Source: Thermosynechococcaceae cyanobacterium Okahandja
Lineage (GTDB): Bacteria; Cyanobacteriota; Cyanobacteriia; Thermosynechococcales; Thermosynechococcaceae
Direction of reading: 5' to 3'
Length of the DNA: 64,000 nucleotides
Assembly: GCA_041530395.1 (NCBI GenBank)
Contig: CP136945.1
Location: 2,108,001 to 2,172,000 of the forward strand
Shown: positions 8,183-10,962 of the stretch, piece by piece
Layout of the letters: each line of letters begins with the position of its first letter
How positions within the stretch are numbered: position 1 is the first letter of the stretch
The notes under the pieces: model-generated
Databases searched by the model: none
Seen by the model: only the letters and a program-made list of their open reading frames with translations
What the model was told of the DNA's origin: nothing
Translations under genes and position numbers: made by a program

Positions 8183-8263
8183 GCGGATGTGGCGGAATTG
8201 GTATACGCGCACGTTTGAGGGGCGTGTGGCTTTGCCTTGCGAGTTCGAGTCTCGCCATCCGCA
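8183..8263 (+). tRNA. trnL-GAG: tRNA-Leu (anticodon GAG)
   Basis: An 81-base type II tRNA. The acceptor stem GCGGATG pairs with CATCCGC and the discriminator is A; CCA is not encoded. The anticodon stem CACGT/GCGTG encloses the loop TTGAGGG, giving anticodon GAG. A long variable arm and the T loop GTTCGAGTC follow, as expected for leucine tRNAs. Confidence 0.93.
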
Positions 8264-8284: not shown

Positions 8285-8316
8285 AAAAAAAGCGGCTGAC
8301 CCCTAAGGAGCCAGCC
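8285..8316 (-). terminator. Rho-independent terminator of ycf35
   Basis: Read on the minus strand, GGCTGGCTCC pairs with GGGGTCAGCC across a TTA loop (ten pairs, two of them G-U), followed by GC and a run of seven T. It lies 54 bases downstream of the ycf35 stop and closes the leftward RHH-ycf46-ycf35 unit. Confidence 0.8.
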
Positions 8317-8369
8317 CGTTGCTTACTTGGGAACGCGCGCTAGACAGTAGAAAGCGGTTAGAAACAGGA

Positions 8370-8723
8370 TTAGCTATGCACCACGAGTTTGACATTGGCA
8401 TTCTGAAGGCCGGGGCGCTTCACCTCTGCCAAGGTTTTGTTAATGGCATACTTTTGATTAATCGAGTTAATTAGCTCTGTTTGGTTGTGCTTTTTGGCAA
8501 CCCCCCACAGATCGGCAATCAAATCAAAAGTACCATCGGCATTCCGGGACCAGCCCAGATCATACTCGCCGTCAAGCACAGCAACAATGTCAGAGCGAAC
8601 TCGCTGGCCATTGTAGCCACGCACATCCGCATCGGTTTTTACCGTAATACCCAAATCCCGTAGCGATGCTTTGAGGATTTCGGCATCGGAGATTTTGGTG
8701 CGCAGAGTGCTGAAGTGAGACAT
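8370..8723 (-). CDS. ycf35: Ycf35 family protein (DUF1257)
   Basis: A 117-residue protein conserved in cyanobacteria and in red-algal plastids, where it is called Ycf35; its biochemical function is not established. Recognised from the N-terminus MSHFSTLRTKI and the internal segments DVRGYNGQRV and DLIADLWGVAKKHNQ. The start ATG at 8723 is set by a perfect GGAGG at 8734-8738; a longer in-frame extension lies upstream of that ribosome site and is rejected. It follows ycf46 in the same orientation, 124 bases downstream, and is closed by a clear terminator, so the two Ycf proteins are probably made from one transcript. Confidence 0.88.
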   Translation of the reverse strand: MSHFSTLRTKISDAEILKASLRDLGITVKTDADVRGYNGQRVRSDIVAVLDGEYDLGWSRNADGTFDLIADLWGVAKKHNQTELINSINQKYAINKTLAEVKRPGLQNANVKLVVHS

Positions 8724-8816
8724 AGTTGGATTTCCTCCAGATTGAGACAAAAACAAAAGAGACATTGGACTGAATGACCCACAATTTATGGCGAACCAAA
8801 CCCTTGTGGTGGGGTC

Positions 8817-8842
8817 TTTCTTCTATCCGCAGATAGAAGGAA
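8817..8842. repeat. Inverted repeat (hairpin) between ycf46 and ycf35
   Basis: CTTTCTTCTATC and GATAGAAGGAAG flank the loop CGCA, giving twelve pairs in plus-strand RNA (one T-G) or eight uninterrupted pairs plus three beyond a mismatch in minus-strand RNA. It sits directly after the ycf46 stop (8848). There is no T-run, so it may be an RNA-processing or stability element rather than a terminator. Confidence 0.5.
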
Positions 8843-8847
8843 GCTTG

Positions 8848-10371
8848 TTAAAACTCCAGTCGCTGGTACTCAGCCACTGAAGCCGCTGCCGGGCGAGCAC
8901 GTTGCCGTGCCCAATCCCGCAGTGCGGTTACCTGCTCGTGCATTGTCTTGGAAAGGGGTTGGGTTGCACGACTCGCGGCAATAATATCGAGTTGGGTAAA
9001 CTCACGTCCTTGGGCAAAGGCCTCGTACATGGCTGCCACAATGGCCTGCTCAATTTCGGCCCCGGAAAAACCATCACAAATGTTGGCCAACTGCTCTAGG
9101 TCAAAGCGGTCAATGTCCCGCCGCCGCTTGGCCAAGTGAATGCGGAAAATCTCTTGCCGCTCTTCGGCATTGGGCAGATCAACAAAGAAAATTTCATCAA
9201 ACCGCCCTTTGCGCAAAAACTCTCCCGGTAAGCGCTCGACGCGGTTTGCCGTTGCCAGCACAAAAACGGGGGAGGCTTTCTCCTGCATCCACGTGAGGAA
9301 AGAACCAAAAATGCGGCTAGAGGTGCCCCCGTCCGAATCGGAGGAACCGGCTCCACCGGCAAAGGCTTTATCCATTTCGTCAATAAAGAGGATGGCCGGT
9401 GAAATGGACTCGGCGGTTTTGAGGGCGTTGCGCAGGTTGGCCTCGGAGCGCCCCACCATCGAGCCATCATAAACCCGCCCCATATCGAGGCGCAGCAGGG
9501 GTAAGCCCCACAGACGGGAGGTGGTCTTGGCAATCAGGGATTTACCGCAGCCGGGCACGCCAAGGATGAGCATCCCCTTCGGCTGGGGCAGGCCGTACTC
9601 GCGGGCTTTTTCACTAAAGGCGTTGGCGCGCTGCCGTAACCACACCTTTAGTTCTTCGAGGCCGCCCACCGCATCAATGGTTTCATCCACCTCCATGTAC
9701 TCGAGGATGCCATTGCGGCGAATGAGTTGCTTTTTCTCAGAAAGAATAATATCCACTTCCGCTTCGCTGAGGCGACCCGCCGTGACGGTGGCCTTACGGA
9801 ATACTTTTTCGGCTTCATCGCGGGTGAGGCCAAGGGTGGCTTTCACCAGCTTTTCCCGCACCTCTGGGCTCAGACGGCGGCTGCGCGGATCTAACTGGGC
9901 AGCCAAAACGTCATTGAGTTCGTTGATACTGGGCAGAGGATAATCTACAACAACGACTTCTTTTTCAAGTTCTACCGGAATTCGCTGGGCGGCCTCCGGC
10001 GACATTAAAATAATGGTTTTATTGGTGTTCTTAAAGCTGGCGATCGCGTCGCGCAGTGAACGGGTGACCGGGGGTGAGTCAATAAAGGGGTGTAGGTCTT
10101 TGAACACATAAATTCCCGGTTCCCGCTGGTGTACCACCCACTGAATGGCTGCTTCGGGAGACACGGTGTTGTGGTGGCTGTTATTGCGGGCATGGCCGTA
10201 CTCCACCATGCCGTGGGTGACCGTCCAAGTGTAGAACTTACGGGGCGCACGACCCTGACTTTGGGACTGGGCGATCGCCGCAATAGCCTGCTCAGCTCGC
10301 TCCTCTTCTGAGGTTAGGAGGTAGATTAATGGGTATTGCGCCTGAATTAGGATACTCAGTTCTTCTTGCAC
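8848..10371 (-). CDS. ycf46: Ycf46 AAA+ ATPase
   Basis: A 507-residue AAA+ ATPase of the cyanobacterial/plastid Ycf46 family, reported to influence photosynthesis and inorganic-carbon use, with an unknown client. Residues 1-220 form the family-specific N-terminal region; the AAA module has Walker A GVPGCGKS, Walker B ILFIDEMDK, sensor residues in VLATANRVERLP, and the arginine finger region EFLRKGRFDEIFF. The start is GTG at 10371, seven bases after the exceptionally strong ribosome site AGGAGGTGAT (10376-10385); the upstream in-frame ATGs would place that site inside the gene. It lies between a small CopG-like gene and ycf35, all leftward. Confidence 0.9.
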   Translation of the reverse strand: MQEELSILIQAQYPLIYLLTSEEERAEQAIAAIAQSQSQGRAPRKFYTWTVTHGMVEYGHARNNSHHNTVSPEAAIQWVVHQREPGIYVFKDLHPFIDSPPVTRSLRDAIASFKNTNKTIILMSPEAAQRIPVELEKEVVVVDYPLPSINELNDVLAAQLDPRSRRLSPEVREKLVKATLGLTRDEAEKVFRKATVTAGRLSEAEVDIILSEKKQLIRRNGILEYMEVDETIDAVGGLEELKVWLRQRANAFSEKAREYGLPQPKGMLILGVPGCGKSLIAKTTSRLWGLPLLRLDMGRVYDGSMVGRSEANLRNALKTAESISPAILFIDEMDKAFAGGAGSSDSDGGTSSRIFGSFLTWMQEKASPVFVLATANRVERLPGEFLRKGRFDEIFFVDLPNAEERQEIFRIHLAKRRRDIDRFDLEQLANICDGFSGAEIEQAIVAAMYEAFAQGREFTQLDIIAASRATQPLSKTMHEQVTALRDWARQRARPAAASVAEYQRLEF

Positions 10372-10375
10372 GGCA

Positions 10376-10385
10376 ATCACCTCCT
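10376..10385 (-). promoter_or_regulatory. Strong ribosome binding site of ycf46
   Basis: AGGAGGTGAT is a near-complete anti-16S match; it decides the GTG start at 10371 over the in-frame ATG codons upstream. Confidence 0.8.
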
Positions 10386-10430
10386 TCATTCGATCAAGAG
10401 ACGTGAACACAAGACGCGATAATTCGGGTC

Positions 10431-10754
10431 TTAGCGGGCTGACACCAGTTCAACAGGTAAAGACGGTACATTCAAACCCTCGTCATCAATGACCGTGGGT
10501 TGATTGACAAGGGCGGCCAATTCACCCCCCCGCAGCACAAGGGCACTGGCACAGGCAGGACAACTATAGACGCGATGGAGGTTACCGTGCTTCTGCTCAG
10601 TGTATTCCGCCAGCACCTCTGGGTGCTCCAACAAAAACTCTATGGCACGTTCCGCAAGGGTGGACATGGTTTCCTGCTCGACCACCGCAGCAATTTTGAG
10701 TTGGCGATGCACATCGGCGGAGAGATACAATGTAACCTTTTGCTTGTCTTCCAT
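10431..10754 (-). CDS. Small ribbon-helix-helix-like protein with CPxC motif
   Basis: 107 residues, function unknown. The first 45 residues (KVTLYLSADVHRQLKIAAV, then TMSTLAERAIEFLLEHPE) look like a CopG/Arc ribbon-helix-helix DNA-binding domain: a basic beta strand followed by two helices. Around residue 66 there is a single Cys pair, YSCPACASAL, of the zinc-ribbon half-site type, with no second pair, so metal binding would need dimerisation or be absent. It is 59 bases upstream of ycf46 on the same strand and probably the first gene of that operon. It could be a local regulator; this is inference from domain type and position. Confidence 0.65.
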   Translation of the reverse strand: MEDKQKVTLYLSADVHRQLKIAAVVEQETMSTLAERAIEFLLEHPEVLAEYTEQKHGNLHRVYSCPACASALVLRGGELAALVNQPTVIDDEGLNVPSLPVELVSAR

Positions 10755-10962
10755 AGGGGTAGGGTGAAGAAACGTACCTAGGTATGTGTGCCAGTGTAGT
10801 CAGGCCGTCTCGGGAGTGTCAAGGCAAAAGGCCGTCAAAACGGCAATTTTGTAATATTTAGTTACATTCCCAGTGACAGTGAGTCTGGAGCACAATTTAC
10901 GCGTCCTGCGGCAACAGACTAGAATCAAGAACAGTCTAAAGAGCCGCTGGTCTGCGTTGTCT
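10755..10962. promoter_or_regulatory. Divergent promoter region of the RHH-ycf46 operon and metH
   Basis: About 210 bases between divergent genes. There is a hairpin GCCGT-CAAA-ACGGC at 10831-10844 followed by AATTTT, and a TAGAAT at 10920-10925 with TTTACG 18 bases before it, a possible metH promoter. I see no cobalamin riboswitch consensus here although metH needs B12. Confidence 0.4.

What the first reader, a model, noticed from the sequence alone, without database searches (positions are those of the whole stretch)
8370..10754. Operon of a CopG/CPxC protein, AAA+ Ycf46 and Ycf35
Three leftward genes of unknown biochemistry share one transcript: a ribbon-helix-helix-like protein with a single CPxC pair, the AAA+ ATPase Ycf46 with the strongest ribosome site I noted in the window, and Ycf35, closed by one clear terminator. 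Ycf46 and Ycf35 are both retained in plastids of algae. A small protein, an AAA+ machine and a companion suggest a remodelling system whose client is undefined.
Basis: partly seen in the sequence, partly recalled or inferred. Interest (0 to 1): 0.55.

Follow-up and report, generated by a model that had tools for sequence, protein, structure and literature searches.

The report
Cyanobacterial stress operon encoding protein-remodelling motor
Three neighbouring genes form one ancient, near-universal cyanobacterial stress operon that probably makes a protein-unfolding motor, its partner protein and a switch that controls their own production; its job in the cell is still unknown.

Summary
The three leftward genes are real and form an operon, but two names need correcting. 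Gene 1 is Slr0373 family (RHH plus CPxC), gene 2 an Slr0374-type AAA+, gene 3 a second DUF1257 protein (Slr0376 by position): the slr0373-slr0374-slr0376 stress operon in print. The genome carries another AAA (46% identical) and the DUF2997-ycf35-fed7 cluster elsewhere, so "Ycf46" and "Ycf35" here are paralogues. Gene order holds in 126 of 127 genomes with all three rows listed; by my thresholds 169 of 194 genomes have all three genes and 23 none. The AAA models as a p97-like tandem AAA with a degenerate first domain. DUF1257 lies near related AAAs on phages and plasmids, suggesting a motor-partner pair. The promoter is conserved: HLR1-like (RpaB) box, TTGACA, then palindrome TACC-NN-GGTA near the expected start site. 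This palindrome occurs once in this genome; 40 of 43 CATACCCGGGTA sites in 96 genomes precede this operon. I infer autorepression by the RHH protein. The P-loop cysteine (111 of 111) fits the light-responsive Cys269 reported for Slr0374. Binding, interaction and client are untested.

The parts
10851..10868 (-). HLR1-like (RpaB) box, reverse orientation, AATGTAACTAAATATTAC, 2 mismatches to the 18-bp consensus
   Evidence: consensus from PMC13421787. Within 2 mismatches in 68 of 88 upstream regions against about 2.2 of 88 in resampled sequence.
10793..10822 (-). sigma-70-type promoter TTGACA-18-TACACT
   Evidence: 3 such sites found in the region, 2.1 expected by chance; position conserved relative to the palindrome.
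10775..10784 (-). palindrome TACCTAGGTA near the expected transcription start: candidate operator
   Evidence: Only copy in the 2.82-Mb genome; TACCNNGGTA in 82 of 89 loci; 40 of 43 CATACCCGGGTA sites in 96 genomes lie before slr0373.
10431..10754 (-). slr0373-family gene: ribbon-helix-helix protein with a CPxC pair; candidate autoregulator
   Evidence: NCBIfam NF052617, 136.6 bits against a cut-off of 100; Antitox_RHH 25.8 bits, just under its cut-off of 27.2; CPxC in 109 of 109.
10376..10386 (-). Shine-Dalgarno site AAGGAGGTGAT of the AAA gene
   Evidence: not conserved (2 of 90).
8848..10371 (-). Slr0374-type tandem AAA+ ATPase (Ycf46-like): degenerate first AAA domain, second domain with P-loop GVPGCGKS
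   Evidence: Pfam AAA 96.6 bits; model pLDDT 87.7; p97-like over residues 1-492; P-loop Cys 111 of 111.
8816..8843 (-). stem-loop directly after the AAA stop codon
   Evidence: Stem begins within 12 nt of the stop in 82 of 91, mean folding z -2.42; element slr0374-x-slr0376 already predicted in PMC2662882.
8731..8738 (-). conserved Shine-Dalgarno GGAGGAAA of the DUF1257 gene
   Evidence: 77 of 90; SD-like 5-mer in 89 of 90 loci.
8370..8723 (-). operon-type DUF1257 protein, 117 aa (Slr0376 by position)
   Evidence: PF06868 79.5 bits, cut-off 22.2; model pLDDT 87.0.
8327..8338 (-). GCGCGTTCCCAA, conserved motif between the last stop codon and the terminator
   Evidence: (GCGTTCCC in 66 of 90); not unique to this operon in other genomes.
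8294..8316 (-). intrinsic terminator
   Evidence: 10 pairs, T7 tail. A strict hairpin-plus-T rule finds one after DUF1257 in 24 of 90 loci, 1 in resampled sequence.

Best explanation
This is the cyanobacterial Slr0373-Slr0374-Slr0376 stress operon. It makes a Cdc48/p97-like protein-remodelling motor (Slr0374-type AAA+; first AAA domain degenerate, second with intact motifs) together with a dedicated DUF1257 partner, and a small RHH protein that most likely represses the operon by binding a palindrome near the transcription start. Light and redox state may enter at two points: RpaB at the HLR1 box sets transcription, and thiol state (P-loop Cys of the AAA; CPxC of the RHH protein) tunes activity and repression. 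SHOWN by sequence: the three-gene unit, its near-universal conservation and joint absence, the conserved promoter parts, the operon-specific palindrome, the invariant cysteines, and DUF1257 lying near related AAAs in mobile elements. INFERRED: AAA and DUF1257 act as one machine; Slr0373 binds the palindrome; RpaB binds the box; the cysteines are switches. The client is unknown; a mutant phenotype in print points to inorganic-carbon use.
For: Unit: slr0373 over the family cut-off in 169 of 194 genomes; trio in order in 126 of 127 genomes with all three rows listed; AAA-to-DUF1257 gap 85-201 nt in 136 of 136. Joint absence in 23 genomes, read from the tables. Partnership: DUF1257 within about 4 kb of 27 of 80 viral AAA genes, all 33 hits on the same strand; adjacent or near on Bacillus, Paenibacillus, Nostoc, Pseudanabaena and Geminocystis plasmids and in Rhizobium and Aeromonas phages (7 of the 10 regions I opened; the Aeromonas gene named). 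Motor: p97 D1-D2 match over residues 1-492, 460 aligned, Z 26.3, rmsd 4.9 (7lmz_E); no GxxxxGK[ST] in residues 1-225 in 111 of 111, Walker B FIDE 111 of 111, RKGRFDE 110 of 111. Operator: top 10-mer in 76 of 89 upstream regions, maximum 4 in ten resampled sets; TTGACA-to-palindrome offset 36-39 nt in 79 of 80; single copy in this genome; 40 of 43 CATACCCGGGTA sites in 96 genomes before slr0373, while the backward control pattern has 7 sites in all. The RHH gene belongs to this version only: its profile finds 79 of 80 operon loci, 0 of 80 viral and 0 of 10 phage/plasmid loci. RHH strand positions K6, T8, Y10 at least 99% conserved. Redox: Slr0374 peptide 260-271 with Cys269 is 91.6% reduced in light, 78.3% in dark (PMC13214033); its length and Cys position fit the P-loop tryptic 12-mer.
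Against: No binding, interaction or ATPase data. In the otherwise intact relative G192 (L120) the palindrome and TTGACA are missing; 6 further loci of 89 lack TACCNNGGTA, and so does L050 of the window's own family (printed, outside the 89). CATACCCGGGTA stands before slr0373 in only 40 of 96 genomes, 86 of which carry the gene by my reading; the others were not examined one by one (the window's genus has the TACCTAGGTA form). P-loop Cys is also common in viral relatives (45 of 80), so it need not have evolved for light control. The Cys269 change is modest (13 points). 51 of 80 viral AAA loci have neither DUF1257 nor DUF2997 within the flank. RHH assignment rests on weak scores (best solved-structure hits E 0.03-0.05), and in 26 relatives CoiA_N matches 11 and Antitox_RHH 10. 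Single-ring Vps4 and spastin score as well as p97 over the second domain alone (Z 26); the first domain was not searched by itself. HLR1 lies at about -82 to -65 if the start is 36 nt after TTGACA, upstream of the published activating range, and low-light activation sits uneasily with stress induction; a paper listing new HLR1 genes does not mention slr0373 (PMC6331805).
Confidence: 0.55

Rival explanations
1. The palindrome is not Slr0373's operator: it is an initiation or 5'-leader element, or the site of another local regulator, and Slr0373 is instead an adaptor or substrate-recognition subunit of the AAA motor.
For: The palindrome sits near the expected start of the transcript and 15-23 nt before the start codon, in a leader without a Shine-Dalgarno site. 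CPxC sits in a separate stretch that weakly resembles zinc-binding families. G192 keeps slr0373 but lacks the palindrome.
Against: A site found about once per genome, directly before a putative RHH gene whose strand residues K6/T8/Y10 are invariant or nearly so, is the usual picture of autoregulation.
Confidence: 0.25
2. The module is an anti-phage defence or toxin-antitoxin unit: RHH antitoxin, AAA ATPase and DUF1257 effector.
For: Antitox_RHH similarity; IetA ATPase profile 90.8 bits; related AAA-DUF1257 pairs on phages and plasmids.
Against: The IteA score, 79.9 bits, is far under that model's cut-off of 510, and no PADLOC model matches the DUF1257 or RHH protein at E 0.01. The operon is conserved in order in nearly all genomes of the class sampled, with a fixed promoter, unlike patchy defence islands. 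Stress-wide induction is in print.
Confidence: 0.07
3. The three proteins are merely co-induced stress proteins without physical contact; AAA and DUF1257 do separate jobs.
For: No interaction data. Separate translation signals and a structured spacer between AAA and DUF1257. In this genome the second AAA and second DUF1257 are unlinked.
Against: AAA-DUF1257 linkage recurs in phages and plasmids, always on one strand in the viral set. Plastid ycf35 and ycf46 each show more than 80% concordance with habitat in red algae (PMC5940233, passages).
Confidence: 0.2
4. The genes are the true Ycf46 and Ycf35 of plastids, as the first reader named them.
For: Family-level similarity; PMC7496141 names Slr0374 Ycf46.
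Against: The own genome has a separate AAA paralogue (46% identity) and a separate DUF1257 (31%) with DUF2997 and ferredoxin beside it. Both neighbours are found in 30 of 30 of the best-scoring canonical loci and in 0 of 111 operon loci within the flanks held. PMC4284462 assigns ycf35 to that cluster.
Confidence: 0.08

Closest known systems
slr0373-slr0374-slr0376 stress-responsive operon of Synechocystis PCC 6803 (Singh and Sherman 2002, seen only as cited in PMC7496141)
   Same: Same three-gene order as far as print tells; gene 1 matches the slr0373 NCBIfam model over cut-off; the P-loop Cys peptide geometry fits Slr0374.
   Different: The PCC 6803 sequence itself was not fetched; Slr0376 = DUF1257 is inferred from position and conserved order.
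DUF2997-ycf35-fed7 cluster (cluster g of PMC4284462) and the canonical Ycf46 paralogue
   Same: DUF1257 family; AAA of the same family.
   Different: Has DUF2997 and a 4Fe-4S ferredoxin; the AAA P-loop is GIQGTGKS in 30 of 30 best-scoring loci, not G[VI]PGCGKS; in this genome AAA and DUF1257 are unlinked.
AAA-DUF1257-DUF2997 modules of phages and plasmids
   Same: AAA of the same family near DUF1257, on one strand in the viral set.
   Different: Usually with DUF2997 (24 of 27 viral loci with DUF1257); no slr0373-family protein in 80 viral and 10 phage/plasmid loci.
p97/Cdc48, Rix7, NVL, Pex1/6 tandem AAA unfoldases
   Same: Predicted D1-D2 tandem AAA fold; Walker and arginine-finger motifs in D2.
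   Different: No N domain; D1 without a Walker A motif; bacterial; remodelling not shown.

Membership tests
Slr0373 family (NF052617) | score over the curated cut-off (100 bits) | tested here: met
   136.6 bits
Slr0373 family (NF052617) | first gene before an Slr0374-type AAA | tested here: met
Ribbon-helix-helix (CopG/Arc/MetJ) DNA-binding proteins | N-terminal strand followed by two helices, profile match | tested here: inconclusive
   Antitox_RHH 25.8 bits, cut-off 27.2; 10 of 26 relatives match at E 0.01; of the three best PDB hits (E 0.03-0.05) one is named RHH by its depositors, that the other two are RHH is recalled
Ribbon-helix-helix (CopG/Arc/MetJ) DNA-binding proteins | binds an operator | not testable with these tools
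   Only a candidate palindrome
Classical AAA ATPase, Cdc48-like tandem | Walker A, Walker B and arginine fingers in one domain | tested here: met
   G[VI]PGCGKS 111 of 111; FIDE 111 of 111; RKGRFDE 110 of 111
Classical AAA ATPase, Cdc48-like tandem | two AAA folds in tandem | tested here: met
   Predicted model: 460 residues aligned to p97 212-763, Z 26.3, rmsd 4.9; prediction only, first domain not searched alone
Classical AAA ATPase, Cdc48-like tandem | both ATP sites intact | tested here: not met
   GxxxxGK[ST] in residues 1-225 in 0 of 111
Ycf35 in the sense of cluster g | DUF1257 beside DUF2997 and a 4Fe-4S ferredoxin | tested here: not met
   0 of 111 operon loci carry either within the flanks held; canonical loci 30 of 30
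DUF1257 (PF06868) | score over gathering cut-off 22.2 | tested here: met
   79.5 bits
Plastid Ycf46 | groups with plastid sequences | not tested
   No plastid sequence was looked for; recalled: CyanoBase labels another gene, slr0480, YCF46
RpaB (HLR1) target promoter | KTTACAWW-N2-KTTACAWW at a fixed place | tested here: inconclusive
   68 of 88 within 2 mismatches, about 2.2 of 88 in resampled sequence; the window has 2 mismatches; binding not tested
IetA/IteA defence ATPase | score over the curated cut-off (510 bits) | tested here: not met
   79.9 bits

The most novel reading that the evidence does not exclude
Ycf46-type tandem AAA motors and DUF1257 proteins are two halves of one widespread remodelling machine that also travels on phages and plasmids. 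Cyanobacteria keep two versions: a ferredoxin-linked one (ycf35 cluster) and this stress-induced one. The latter is under a private one-site autorepressor whose CPxC, together with the motor's P-loop cysteine, makes the machine a thiol-gated chaperone tied to photosynthetic redox state.
Probability: 0.3. Interest if true: 0.8.

Novelty: new variant of a known kind. Interest (0 to 1): 0.58.

Why it matters
Ycf35 and Ycf46 are long-standing orphan names. A near-universal operon with an operon-specific candidate operator, a defined partner pair and a measurable redox cysteine turns "function unknown" into tests that can be done in a laboratory cyanobacterium. The link to phage and plasmid modules suggests that the motor-partner pair is a general bacterial machine.

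Tried and rejected
Rejected: the name Ycf35 for gene 3. Defence system. A P-loop cysteine unique to this operon: viral relatives have it in 45 of 80. A unique 3' motif: GCGCGTTCCCAA occurs 1 to 6 times in 42 of 59 genomes, 82 sites against 27 of the backward control. A known RNA family in the spacer: only the tRNA was found by Rfam at E 1.

Led nowhere: DUF1257 fold. Foldseek gave no match at E 0.001 or better; the best VIA rows (Z 6.3 and below, kinase-associated and adaptin-like domains) lie in the range that the tool calls common; by sequence no solved structure better than E 0.03. The RNAalifold consensus of the spacer was poor on an 89-row alignment, so I used single-sequence folding; covariation was not shown. 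DUF1257 tree: 5 of 46 branches starred, operon group needs 2 changes, so a mirrored history of AAA and DUF1257 is not shown. The AAA tree separates operon (99*) and canonical (100*) groups, but with long mobile branches and a quick search.

Slips and limits: the AAA and DUF1257 proteins started one codon upstream of the preferred start; the window row of A2 starts one codon late; the locus rows of A5 lost their last residue, so C-terminal cysteines are counted only. First-order resampling, not exact dinucleotide shuffling, was used. The 111 operon loci are 80 best relatives of the G192 AAA, 29 best, the window's own and G192; one slr0373 match was missing and one start could not be set, hence 109. 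Searches used 89 of these regions (most Thermosynechococcus copies dropped as near-identical), 88. The 30 canonical AAA and 30 canonical DUF1257 loci are the best-scoring ones, not a random draw; weaker second copies seen were not examined. The ten phage and plasmid regions were chosen by eye.
Full report
WHAT IS THERE. The window holds three minus-strand genes at 10754-10431, 10371-8848 and 8723-8370. Gene 1 matches the NCBIfam model "slr0373 family blue light stress response protein" at 136.6 bits, cut-off 100, with a weak RHH match. Gene 2 is an AAA ATPase, 96.6 bits. Gene 3 is DUF1257, 79.5 bits. A terminator follows at 8316-8294 and a convergent tRNA-Leu(gag) lies at 8183-8263.

WHICH OPERON. 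Passages of PMC7496141 describe slr0373, slr0374 and slr0376 as one stress operon (citing Singh and Sherman 2002), the three hypothetical genes most strongly induced by blue light, and say that inactivation of slr0374, which it calls Ycf46, lowers activity of the carbonic anhydrase EcaB (citing Jiang et al. 2015). I saw neither cited paper. A table in PMC2662882 lists an RNA element "slr0374-x-slr0376" (passage), which fits the same order. The identity of Slr0376 with DUF1257 is my inference from position; the PCC 6803 sequence was not retrieved.

PARALOGUES, NOT YCF35. The own genome has a second AAA of this type (46% identity) and a second DUF1257 (31%). The second DUF1257 stands between DUF2997 and a 4Fe-4S ferredoxin, the arrangement that PMC4284462 calls cluster g, with ycf35 and fed7 (passages). 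In 30 of 30 of the best-scoring canonical DUF1257 loci both neighbours are found; in 0 of 111 operon loci is either found within the flanks held. The canonical AAA P-loop is GIQGTGKS in 30 of 30 best-scoring loci; the operon type is GVPGCGKS in 107 and GIPGCGKS in 4 of 111. In a 36-protein quick tree both groups are separated by starred branches, though long mobile branches make their order unsure.

CONSERVATION. In 194 genomes of the class, slr0373 is over cut-off in 169. Taking AAA matches at E 1e-180 or better and DUF1257 matches at E 1e-40 or better as operon type (my thresholds, read from the tables), 169 genomes have all three and 23 have none (20 of family f2, plus G077, G096 and G182). 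Two are mixed (G070 and G093, 68% and 62% complete: DUF1257 only). G059 and G145 are counted as having the AAA, although they miss the E threshold, because its pieces lie between the other two genes in broken frames. f2 has small genomes (1.6-3.0 Mb) and is probably the marine picocyanobacteria; names are not given. Where rows for all three genes were listed (each listing stops at about 150 rows), the order is kept in 126 of 127; the exception, G105, has slr0373 on another contig.

THE MOTOR. The AlphaFold2 model (pLDDT 87.7) matches p97 over residues 1-492 (7lmz_E: Z 26.3, rmsd 4.9, 460 aligned; Foldseek best 7ln4_E at 5.7e-21), so the protein is predicted to be a tandem AAA. Single-ring Vps4 and spastin score alike over the second domain, and the first domain was not searched alone. 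No Walker A motif exists in the first 225 residues in any of 111 relatives, while the second domain keeps Walker A, Walker B and arginine fingers.

THE PARTNER. I opened ten phage and plasmid regions. DUF1257 genes sit near related AAA genes on plasmids of Bacillus, Pseudanabaena (34), Geminocystis (35), Nostoc (36) and Paenibacillus (40), and in Rhizobium (41) and Aeromonas (33; named) phages. In a Treponema plasmid the DUF1257 lies among phage tail genes and the AAA about 54 kb away. The Microcoleus phage (38) and P-SSM2 (39) stretches show no annotated AAA neighbour. Of 80 viral AAA loci (the best 80 of 273), 27 carry DUF1257 within the flank, all 33 hits on the same strand, and 26 carry DUF2997; 24 carry both and 51 neither. 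The same DUF1257 profile found only the known gene among the window's ORFs. The slr0373 profile finds 79 of 80 operon loci but 0 of 80 viral and 0 of 10 phage/plasmid loci, so the RHH gene marks the cyanobacterial version. In red-algal plastids, presence of ycf35 and of ycf46 each agrees with habitat in over 80% of 127 species (passages of PMC5940233). In the held library three papers name DUF1257 and two DUF2997; the passages I saw of all of them do not describe an AAA-DUF1257 module. The other papers name ycf35; most were seen only in the listing.

THE SWITCH. Upstream of slr0373 the commonest 10-mer, ACCCGGGTAT, is in 76 of 89 regions (maximum 4 in ten resampled sets). TACCNNGGTA is in 82 of 89, 15-23 nt before the start codon; TTGACA stands 36-39 nt before it in 79 of 80 regions with both, which puts the palindrome near the expected transcript start (no start was mapped). 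The window's version TACCTAGGTA occurs once in the whole genome, here. CATACCCGGGTA occurs 43 times in 96 genomes and 40 of these lie before slr0373 (two placed by the AAA gene); three lie elsewhere, and the backward control pattern has 7 sites in all. A private site before a putative RHH gene suggests autorepression. The RHH strand positions K6, T8 and Y10 are at least 99% conserved in 109 sequences; that such alternating residues touch bases in MetJ and Arc is recalled. Upstream lies an HLR1-like box: within 2 mismatches in 68 of 88 (about 2.2 in resampled sequence), 46 nt before TTGACA in 62 of 66 regions that have both. HLR1 is the RpaB site, KTTACAWW-N2-KTTACAWW (passages of PMC13421787). 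Against this, G192 and 6 other loci of 89 lack the palindrome, as does L050, and an HLR1 survey does not mention slr0373 (PMC6331805). A library search for the palindrome letters gave 36 papers; the 20 listed are not about this operon by title. No held paper has both RpaB and slr0376.

REDOX. The P-loop cysteine is in 111 of 111 operon AAAs and is the only cysteine in the G192 protein. PMC13214033 (section 9 read) lists Slr0374 peptide 260-271, Cys269, as 91.6% reduced in light and 78.3% in dark. The predicted tryptic P-loop peptide of the window and G192 proteins has the same length, 12, with Cys in the same place, 10th. The section read does not say that this is the P-loop. That oxidation of P-loop cysteines inhibits NSF and p97 is recalled. 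Against a special role: viral relatives share the cysteine in 45 of 80. In Slr0373, CPxC is in 109 of 109 and a C-terminal cysteine in 83 of 109, not in the window.

TRANSLATION AND RNA. A Shine-Dalgarno-like site precedes slr0373 in 0 of 88, AAA in 2 of 90 (the window is one by inspection) and DUF1257 in 89 of 90. A stem-loop starts within 12 nt of the AAA stop in 82 of 91.

VERDICT. Mechanism confidence is moderate because every step of function is inferred.

Noticed in passing
L117, L109, L108, L116, L112, L110, L111: Ycf46-like AAA with DUF1257 (and often DUF2997) on phages and plasmids of several phyla; not described in the few held papers that name DUF1257 or DUF2997.
   Followed up: partly
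window 8327-8338: GCGCGTTCCCAA before the terminator is conserved in this operon and recurs elsewhere in many genomes.
   Followed up: partly
window 8816-8843: Conserved stem-loop right after the AAA stop codon; an RNA element between slr0374 and slr0376 was predicted in PMC2662882.
   Followed up: partly
L120 upstream of slr0373: The palindrome is absent and a different long palindrome, TAGCGTTATAACGCTA, is present (seen by eye in the print-out).
   Followed up: no
plasmid collection: 708 plasmid records, 592 of them typed conjugative, hold a Ycf46-like AAA at E 1e-30; neighbours of all but a few were not examined.
   Followed up: no
L113 5001-5408: DUF1257 gene embedded among phage tail genes on a Treponema plasmid.
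   Followed up: no
L110 571-6515: Pseudanabaena plasmid gene run with GrpE, Hsp70, DUF1257, DUF2997 and the AAA: a chaperone context for the module.
   Followed up: no
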